Part shown: piece by piece, positions 38,022 through 38,909 of the stretch
How the letters are laid out: each line of letters starts with the position of its first letter
How positions within the stretch are numbered: the stretch's first letter is position 1
Source of the DNA: Vibrio japonicus
GTDB lineage: Bacteria > Pseudomonadota > Gammaproteobacteria > Enterobacterales > Vibrionaceae
Length of the DNA stretch: 64,000 nucleotides
Assembly (NCBI RefSeq): GCF_024582835.1
Contig: NZ_CP102096.1
Location: 930,001 to 994,000 of the forward strand
Direction of reading: 5' to 3'
Program-made: the position numbers and the translations under genes
Notes under the pieces: model-generated
What the model was told of the DNA's origin: nothing
Databases searched by the model: none
What the model saw: only the letters and a program-made list of their open reading frames with translations

Positions 38022-38909
38022 ATGAGTTGGTTAGAAAAGCTATTAGATAAAAAGAATATAATTAATTCGCGTAAAGCGTCGATCCCAGAGGGAATATGGA
38101 CAAAATGCCCCTCTTGTGACCAAGTCTTATACCGTGTAGCTCTTGAAGAGAGTCTAGCGGTATGTCCAAAATGCGATCATTATATGAGGTTAGCAGCACG
38201 CCAACGCTTAGACAGTTTTTTGGATAAAGGAGAGCGAATTGAAATTGCCAGTGAACTTGAACCGAAAGATTTGCTGAATTTTAAGGACCTGAAACGATAT
38301 ACGGAACGCATTGCGCTAGCTCAGAAAAGTACAGGAGAAAAAGATGCGCTAGTTGTGATGAAAGGAAAACTGATGGGATTACCTGTGGTTGCTTGCGCAT
38401 TCGAGTTCTCTTTTATGGCAGGCTCGATGGGCTCAGTTGTAGGTGCACGTTTCGTTCGGGCAGTTGAAGCGGCTATAGATTCAAATTGTGGATTGGTATG
38501 CTTTTCTGCTTGTGGTGGTGCTCGAATGCAAGAGTCGCTAATGGCTCTGATGCAAATGGCCAAAACCAGTGCTGCTTTGAATCAATTATCAATGGCTAAA
38601 TTACCCTATATATCGGTACTGACAGATCAGACTTATGGTGGAGTCTCTGCAAGCTTAGCGATGTTAGGTGACATCAACATTGGAGAGCCCAAGGCAAGAA
38701 TCGGATTTGCGGGGCGCCGTGTTATAGAACAAACCGTTCGAGAAAAGTTACCCGAAAGCTTTCAACAGAGTGAGTTTCTCCTAGAGCATGGTGCTCTCGA
38801 TATGATTGTGGATAGGCGTGATATGCGAAAACGAGTTGGGGGACTAATAGCTAAAATGACAAATACAATTATTCCGTCGGATAAGAATATGAAGCTTGAT
38901 CGTTCATGA
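38022..38909 (+). CDS. Divergent acetyl-CoA carboxylase carboxyltransferase beta subunit (AccD paralogue)
   Basis: 295 residues (E. coli AccD 304). From ATG 38022 the N-terminus SWLEKLL and zinc ribbon (Cys29, 32, 48, 51 in TKCPSC and VCPKC) match AccD; the frame upstream to 37890 has no conserved sequence. The crotonase-like core is intact (SMGSVVGARFVRAVE, CGGARMQESLM, GGVSAS). Differences from E. coli AccD, counted by eye: TDPTMGG reads TDQTYGG, so E. coli Met203 is Tyr205 and Pro201 is Gln; GPRVIEQ reads GRRVIEQ; FMGGSMG reads FMAGSMG; FSASGG reads FSACGG. The usual accD neighbours (truA, folC, dedA type) are absent; instead it faces a LysR gene and the imuA-imuB-dnaE2 cassette. AGG, AGA and ATA codons are used more than in the fab genes. 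I infer an extra copy rather than the housekeeping accD. Its AccA partner must come from elsewhere. Confidence 0.88.
   Translation: MSWLEKLLDKKNIINSRKASIPEGIWTKCPSCDQVLYRVALEESLAVCPKCDHYMRLAARQRLDSFLDKGERIEIASELEPKDLLNFKDLKRYTERIALAQKSTGEKDALVVMKGKLMGLPVVACAFEFSFMAGSMGSVVGARFVRAVEAAIDSNCGLVCFSACGGARMQESLMALMQMAKTSAALNQLSMAKLPYISVLTDQTYGGVSASLAMLGDINIGEPKARIGFAGRRVIEQTVREKLPESFQQSEFLLEHGALDMIVDRRDMRKRVGGLIAKMTNTIIPSDKNMKLDRS

What the first reader, a model, noticed from the sequence alone, without database searches (positions are those of the whole stretch)
38022..38909. Orphan accD paralogue with a changed inhibitor-contact residue
Seen: AccD with intact zinc cysteines and oxyanion glycines, but TDPTMGG of E. 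coli reads TDQTYGG here, so the residue equivalent to E. coli Met203 is Tyr, and three other usually fixed residues nearby change (Pro201 to Gln, GPRV to GRRV, FMGG to FMAG). Established, from memory: the andrimid producer's own AccD homologue (AdmT) resists andrimid, and position 203 was shown to set this. Andrimid-type inhibitors are made by some vibrios. Inference: this copy is an alternative carboxyltransferase beta subunit that tolerates such an inhibitor, switched on by the adjacent LysR. No andrimid biosynthesis genes are in the window, so it would be stand-alone resistance or immunity. The canonical accD context is missing.
Basis: partly seen in the sequence, partly recalled or inferred. 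Interest (0 to 1): 0.8.

Follow-up and report, generated by a model that had tools for sequence, protein, structure and literature searches.

The report
Mobile spare enzyme for antibiotic tolerance
This bacterium carries a second, altered copy of a fatty-acid-synthesis enzyme subunit together with its own switch gene; relatives of this two-gene unit recur at different genome sites in marine bacteria, and one relative sits inside the andrimid antibiotic cluster, so it most likely helps cells survive a neighbour's antibiotic that they cannot make themselves.

Summary
In detail: 38022-38909 (+) encodes a second AccD beside a divergent LysR gene. The ordinary accD (truA-accD-folC, TDPTMGG) lies elsewhere; accA is single.

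The reading is strengthened but moved from one residue to a family. 62 of 227 Vibrio genomes carry the same divergent LysR/AccD pair; 1 of 227 has the andrimid aminomutase over cut-off. The 120 listed best relatives (of 7997) all carry A131, S170, Q201 and L/F/Y/W203. Both andrimid clusters examined, V. coralliilyticus OCN008 and SWAT-3, hold this pair, and their AdmTs nest inside the stand-alone clade. LysR and AccD2 distances correlate (r 0.89); AccD2 and host AccD do not (r -0.10). The window's site is empty in 22 of 29 relatives' loci. The sequence between the genes is strongly conserved. Related LysRs sit beside an MFS transporter or a monooxygenase.

Best explanation: an inducible, mobile target-replacement module against andrimid-type carboxyltransferase inhibitors. 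Tolerance and induction are inferred, not shown. Y203 alone is weak evidence; GRRV is uninformative.

The parts
38022..38909 (+). accD2: second carboxyltransferase beta subunit, 295 aa, AdmT-like
37011..37910 (-). LysR-type regulator, 299 aa from ATG (a TTG start at 37925 is also possible), divergent from accD2; HTH_1 and LysR_substrate domains; 77% identical to the LysR of the V. coralliilyticus OCN008 andrimid cluster
37911..38021 (.). 111-bp intergenic region shared by both genes
37919..37938 (+). operator-like imperfect dyad GTCCCAAATTGTGGGATTAT; TCCCA-N5-T-N-GGATT conserved in AccD-type pairs; candidate LysR site (inferred)
37954..37985 (+). conserved CACTTTATT ... ATACAAT block, candidate promoter of accD2 (inferred)
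38418..38420 (+). Ala, E. coli position 131 (Gly in E. coli)
38535..38537 (+). Ser, E. coli position 170 (Ala in E. coli)
38628..38630 (+). Gln, E. coli position 201 (Pro in E. coli)
38634..38636 (+). Tyr, E. coli position 203 (Met in E. coli), directly before the GG pair
35871..36818 (+). CheV-like gene, left flank of the insertion (not part of the module)
38918..41989 (-). dnaE2/imuC-like gene, right flank of the insertion (not part of the module; name recalled from its sequence)

Best explanation
The LysR gene (37011-37910) and accD2 (38022-38909) form a self-contained mobile resistance module. AccD2 is an alternative carboxyltransferase beta subunit that pairs with the cell's single AccA and keeps acetyl-CoA carboxylase running when an andrimid-type inhibitor has poisoned the ordinary AccA2D2 enzyme. 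The altered surface just before the active-site glycines (Gln201, bulky non-Met 203) together with Ala131 and Ser170 is proposed to lower inhibitor affinity. LysR sits on the shared intergenic region and turns accD2 on when the inhibitor, or the resulting metabolic block, is sensed. Shown: the gene, its paralogy, the conserved pair, the conserved intergenic sequence, movement independent of the host's own accD, an empty site in relatives, purifying selection, and kinship with AdmT of Vibrio andrimid clusters. Inferred: complex formation with AccA, tolerance, sensing and induction, and that the relevant inhibitor is andrimid.
For: A second accD beside an ordinary one and a single accA. The V. 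coralliilyticus OCN008 plasmid has a Phe aminomutase over the TIGR04475 cut-off (920.4 of 800 bits), NRPS/PKS genes and, inside, the same divergent LysR/accD pair; SWAT-3 likewise. AccD tree: 64 extra copies against 28 ordinary ones, one split with 100/100 support; the two AdmTs lie in a 6-row subclade at 100/100 inside the extra copies; this holds with the five signature columns masked and L200 and L039 left out (97 and 99 SH-aLRT, quick tree). Signature in 120 of 120 listed best hits of 7997. LysR against AccD2 distance r 0.89, n 61, p 0.0005; AccD2 against the host's ordinary AccD r -0.10, n 15, p 0.71. Empty site in 22 of 29 fetched relatives' loci. 42 loci fall into 20 neighbourhood groups. 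Stand-alone pair on a mobilizable Pseudoalteromonas plasmid. dN 0.046-0.081 against dS 0.58-1.56 in five comparisons. Literature, passages only: AdmT with E. coli AccA forms an active A2T2 complex, IC50 500 nM against 12 nM for A2D2, and E. coli overexpressing admT is resistant (PMC6269866); an LTTR gene lies directly upstream of admT in the Vibrio clusters (PMC5216899).
Against: No activity, binding or expression data exist for this gene or any stand-alone relative. Position 203 is not fixed among ordinary AccDs: Tyr in P. aeruginosa and one Vibrio, Leu and Phe in 2 of 15 other families of the order, Thr in S. aureus, an enzyme known to bind moiramide B. Ala131 and Ser170 each occur in 2 of those 15 ordinary copies. 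Two deep extra copies (L073, L200) read TNPTLGG with Pro201 kept. The window's Tyr203 is not the Phe203 of the two Vibrio AdmTs. Enterobacterial AdmTs, the ones actually assayed, could not be obtained, so their membership in this clade is untested. 7 of 63 AccD-type places in Vibrio have a broken or cut accD2 (1 of them, L169, at a contig end).
Confidence: 0.72

Rival explanations
1. Same mechanism, but the cognate inhibitor is another natural carboxyltransferase inhibitor of marine bacteria, andrimid being only one of a class. The andrimid producers captured a pre-existing general module.
For: The pair is far commoner than the andrimid cluster: 62 of 227 Vibrio genomes against 1 of 227 with the aminomutase over cut-off, and a published survey lists the cluster in 2 of 56,817 Vibrio assemblies (passage of PMC11350110). 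Other ACC inhibitors with the same warhead exist (butuanimides, PMC13151354). Position 203 varies (F, L, Y, W) as if tuned to more than one ligand.
Against: No other inhibitor cluster was found holding this pair, though only neighbourhoods of the fetched loci were inspected.
Confidence: 0.35
2. A condition-specific isozyme for ordinary metabolism: LysR senses a metabolite and swaps the beta subunit to change carboxylase regulation, with no antibiotic involved.
For: LysR regulators often sense metabolites (established knowledge); the enzyme looks intact and under purifying selection.
Against: Patchy presence, host-independent descent, many insertion contexts, capture by the andrimid cluster and related LysRs beside an MFS transporter fit resistance better than core metabolism.
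Confidence: 0.15
3. A relic: the pair is what is left after loss of an andrimid cluster.
For: The pair is found inside andrimid clusters.
Against: The stand-alone copies are much more diverse than the cluster copies, which nest among them; the window site is a clean insertion between cheV and dnaE2 without cluster remnants; selection is purifying.
Confidence: 0.06

Closest known systems
AdmT, andrimid-resistant carboxyltransferase beta subunit of andrimid producers (Liu, Fortin and Walsh 2008; paper not held, described in PMC6269866)
   Same: Second AccD with changes at the residues before the active-site glycines; the Vibrio AdmTs lie in the same clade and have the same divergent LysR.
   Different: Not in a biosynthetic cluster; host lacks the andrimid aminomutase over cut-off; Tyr203 rather than Phe203 of the two Vibrio AdmTs; resistance not tested.
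Resistant AccA copy co-expressed with the thailandamide cluster (Wozniak et al. 2018; paper not held; title seen in the reference list of PMC13151354)
   Same: Target-duplication resistance at the carboxyltransferase.
   Different: Other subunit (AccA) and cluster-bound.
Housekeeping accD between truA and folC
   Same: TIGR00515 member, 76% identical to this genome's own copy.
   Different: Different place, divergent LysR, Gln201/Tyr203/Ala131/Ser170.
AdmX, the LysR regulator of Serratia andrimid clusters (PMC5216899)
   Same: LysR-type regulator linked to andrimid.
   Different: By that paper AdmX is limited to Serratia clusters, and the Vibrio LysR next to admT is a separate observation. AdmX was not compared by sequence here.

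Membership tests
AccD (TIGR00515) | Profile score above the curated cut-off, full length | tested here: met
   425.8 against 317.45 bits, residues 1-282
AccD (TIGR00515) | Zinc ribbon with four cysteines | tested here: met
   two CxxC pairs in the translation; Pfam Zn_ribbon_ACC
AccD (TIGR00515) | Active carboxyltransferase with AccA | not testable with these tools
   only purifying selection seen
Housekeeping accD | Position between truA and folC | tested here: not met
   that place holds the other copy, L002
AdmT of andrimid clusters | Additional AccD beside an ordinary copy | tested here: met
AdmT of andrimid clusters | Common clade with Vibrio AdmT | tested here: met
AdmT of andrimid clusters | Common clade with enterobacterial AdmT (the assayed ones) | not tested
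   sequences not obtained
AdmT of andrimid clusters | Encoded inside an andrimid biosynthetic cluster | tested here: not met
   flanks are cheV-like and dnaE2-like; no aminomutase over cut-off in the genome. So it is AdmT-like, not filed as AdmT
AdmT of andrimid clusters | Residue 203 changed from Met | tested here: met
   Tyr here, Phe in both Vibrio AdmTs
AdmT of andrimid clusters | Confers andrimid resistance | not testable with these tools
   needs assay
LysR-type regulators | HTH_1 and LysR_substrate domains | tested here: met
   71.8 and 68.3 bits, over both gathering scores
LysR-type regulators | Binds and controls the divergent gene | tested here: inconclusive
   intergenic sequence conserved in AccD-type pairs; no binding data

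The most novel reading that the evidence does not exclude
An old, mobile, inducible immunity cassette against carboxyltransferase inhibitors circulates among marine Gammaproteobacteria independently of any producer. The Vibrio andrimid cluster acquired its self-resistance by capturing one such cassette. The LysR is a dedicated sensor whose single divergent output gene has been exchanged in evolution: target replacement (AccD2), efflux (MFS) or, in more distant relatives, a FAD monooxygenase.
Probability: 0.42. Interest if true: 0.75.

Novelty: new variant of a known kind. Interest (0 to 1): 0.62.

Why it matters
If true, resistance to a promising antibiotic class (acetyl-CoA carboxylase carboxyltransferase inhibitors) already circulates as a two-gene mobile unit in about a quarter of the sampled Vibrio species and on a mobilizable Pseudoalteromonas plasmid. 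It would be a clear case in which a stand-alone immunity gene is older and wider than the biosynthetic cluster that uses it. The conserved LysR and operator offer a ready biosensor for new carboxylase inhibitors. The question 'who in the sea is immune to andrimid' becomes directly testable by comparing strains with and without the pair.

Tried and rejected
Rejected: residue 203 as sufficient evidence and GRRV as a special change. Rejected: plasmid hits in Enterobacterales and Pseudomonas as mobile copies; the six looked at (H7, H9, H10, H15, H20, H22) are ordinary truA-accD-folC segments. H2, a 2.06-Mb Vibrio campbellii record in the plasmid collection, is by its size a chromosome (inference). 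Phage hits (18 records) are 64% identical or less in the 10 rows listed and were not followed. The MFS partners are only about 24-30% identical to MFS A of the OCN008 andrimid cluster and do not match its MFS B, so no orthology is claimed.

Led nowhere: the search for enterobacterial AdmT. A structure prediction was not made: the tools return no coordinates, so distances to the inhibitor site could not be measured.

Rows dropped: L278 and L281 (taken from the wrong strand by my script); L045, L057, L068 (no AccD); L200 and L039 (long branches); broken AccD copies from the AccD tree. The bootstrap had not settled (correlation 0.976).

Searches of the literature for a stand-alone LysR/accD pair or an orphan admT; I saw no such report in the listings, but most subscription papers are not held, and Liu et al. 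2008, which as I recall also listed other strains with a changed residue 203, could not be read.

Full report
What is there. Window 38022-38909 (+) encodes a 295-residue AccD. Divergently, 111 bp away, 37011-37910 (-) encodes a LysR-type regulator with HTH_1 and LysR_substrate domains. The genome holds one other accD, 76% identical, between truA and folC and reading TDPTMGG, and one accA over the family cut-off. The extra copy reads TDQTYGG and FMAG.

A family, not a single oddity. A search of 148 Vibrio genomes with the extra AccD found many with a second match (the place list was cut by the tool). With a LysR profile (16 rows), 73 of 227 Vibrio genomes have a match at E <= 1e-90, in 74 places. 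Of those 74 places 63 (in 62 genomes, SWAT-3 having two) have the AccD paralogue divergent beside the LysR, 8 an MFS transporter, 1 a FAD monooxygenase and 2 neither; one of the 2, L149, is at a contig end in a genome whose AccD paralogue starts another contig. 56 of the 63 accD2 genes are full length, 7 broken or cut, one of these at a contig end. In the named species collection 80 of 96 LysR relatives were kept: 38 beside AccD, 15 beside MFS, 25 beside a monooxygenase, 2 with no partner recognised. Outside Vibrio the pair was seen in a Photobacterium genome, on a mobilizable Pseudoalteromonas plasmid and in two further family codes among 394 genomes of the order, one of them with an incomplete AccD match. 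Among 120 listed best database relatives of V. coralliilyticus AdmT, of 7997 above threshold, all carry A131, S170, Q201 and L 87, F 25, Y 7 or W 1 at 203.

Link to andrimid. The OCN008 plasmid of V. coralliilyticus has a D-beta-Phe aminomutase at 920.4 bits (cut-off 800) and NRPS/PKS genes with the same divergent LysR/accD pair inside; its LysR is 77% identical to the window's. SWAT-3 has the pair next to andrimid-type genes (L070), with the aminomutase on the same contig, and a second, stand-alone pair (L065). In a tree of 92 AccDs the 64 extra copies form one side of a branch (100/100), and both AdmTs lie within a six-row subclade (100/100) inside it, next to stand-alone copies (bootstrap not settled). 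Masking five signature columns and leaving out two long rows keeps both splits (97 and 99). Hence, rooting the extra copies with the ordinary ones, the cluster copies are derived within a wider stand-alone family. The aminomutase is over cut-off in 1 of 227 Vibrio genomes, not in this one; weaker matches in 203 of 227 are presumably histidine ammonia-lyases (inference). A published survey counts the cluster in 2 of 56,817 Vibrio assemblies (passage of PMC11350110).

Mobility. Over 61 pairs LysR and AccD2 distances correlate at r 0.89 (p 0.0005, 2000 permutations). Over 15 genomes for which I had both, AccD2 does not follow the host's own AccD (r -0.10, p 0.71). In 22 of 29 fetched relatives' loci cheV and dnaE2 are neighbours with nothing between; the other 7 show no dnaE2 within the fetched stretch, and none of the 29 shows the pair there. 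42 loci with wider flanks fall into 20 groups that share no neighbour within 6 kb. dN is 0.046-0.081 and dS 0.58-1.56 between the window copy and five relatives, so it is a maintained gene.

Regulation. In 69 unique AccD-type intergenic regions the columns TCCCA, GGATT, CACTTTATT and ATACAAT are 90-100% conserved. A strict pattern count over 70 AccD-type upstream stretches gives 58 with TCCCA-N5-T-N-GGATT, 60 with CACTTTATT and 61 with ATACAAT. MFS-type stretches keep it in part (3, 11 and 11 of 23), and monooxygenase-type stretches hardly at all (0, 0 and 1 of 29). So a shared operator is well supported only within the AccD type and partly for the MFS type. In the LysR tree (123 rows, quick method, several long branches) partner type needs 6 changes over four labels, and a four-row MFS group lies among AccD-type LysRs: partner exchange is likely but rests on moderate support.

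Mechanism. Literature passages: E. coli overexpressing admT is resistant; AdmT with E. coli AccA forms an active complex with IC50 500 nM against 12 nM (PMC6269866); moiramide B binds at the AccA/AccD active site (PMC13151354). By kinship the window AccD2 should replace the poisoned beta subunit. Residue 203 directly precedes the GG pair that I recall as part of the oxyanion site. Results that weaken the residue argument: ordinary AccDs with Tyr (P. aeruginosa, one Vibrio genome with a single accD), Leu or Phe (2 of 15) and Thr (S. aureus) at 203; Ala131 and Ser170 each in 2 of 15 ordinary copies. Gln201 was found in none of 28 plus 15 ordinary rows. Two deep extra copies keep Pro201.

Novelty. 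AdmT as in-cluster self-resistance is known, and the LysR upstream of Vibrio admT was noted in PMC5216899 (passages). I saw no report of the stand-alone pair in the listings; the key 2008 paper is not held. I therefore call it a new variant of a known kind.

Noticed in passing
L057, L068, L080-L090, L094, L100, L191, L193, L202-L205, L208, L209, L213, L215, L219: Close relatives of the LysR sit divergent to an MFS transporter instead of AccD2; an exchanged output gene.
   Followed up: partly
L093, L095-L115, L117-L120, L207, L216-L218: More distant LysR relatives (49-54% identical) sit divergent to a FAD-dependent monooxygenase; its best curated model is urate hydroxylase HpxO, far below cut-off.
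   Followed up: partly
L065 and L070 (Vibrionales bacterium SWAT-3): An andrimid producer carries two LysR/AccD2 pairs, one in the cluster and one stand-alone from a different branch.
   Followed up: partly
L073 and L200: Deep extra AccD copies with TNPTLGG: Pro201 kept, Asp200 changed to Asn, Leu203.
   Followed up: no
L232 (G069): A Vibrio genome whose only AccD match has Tyr203 with Pro201; its natural sensitivity to carboxyltransferase inhibitors would be informative.
   Followed up: no
L144, L159, L182, L187, L189, L197, L211: Broken or incomplete accD2 copies beside a LysR in several genomes, suggesting loss where selection is relaxed.
   Followed up: no
L293 (G888): A lone Phe aminomutase-like gene with an in-frame stop inside the match, without andrimid cluster genes around it.
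   Followed up: partly
window 18262-23870: Fatty-acid synthesis gene run (plsX, fabH, fabD, fabG, fabF by sequence, names recalled), about 13 kb from the pair; looks ordinary.
   Followed up: no
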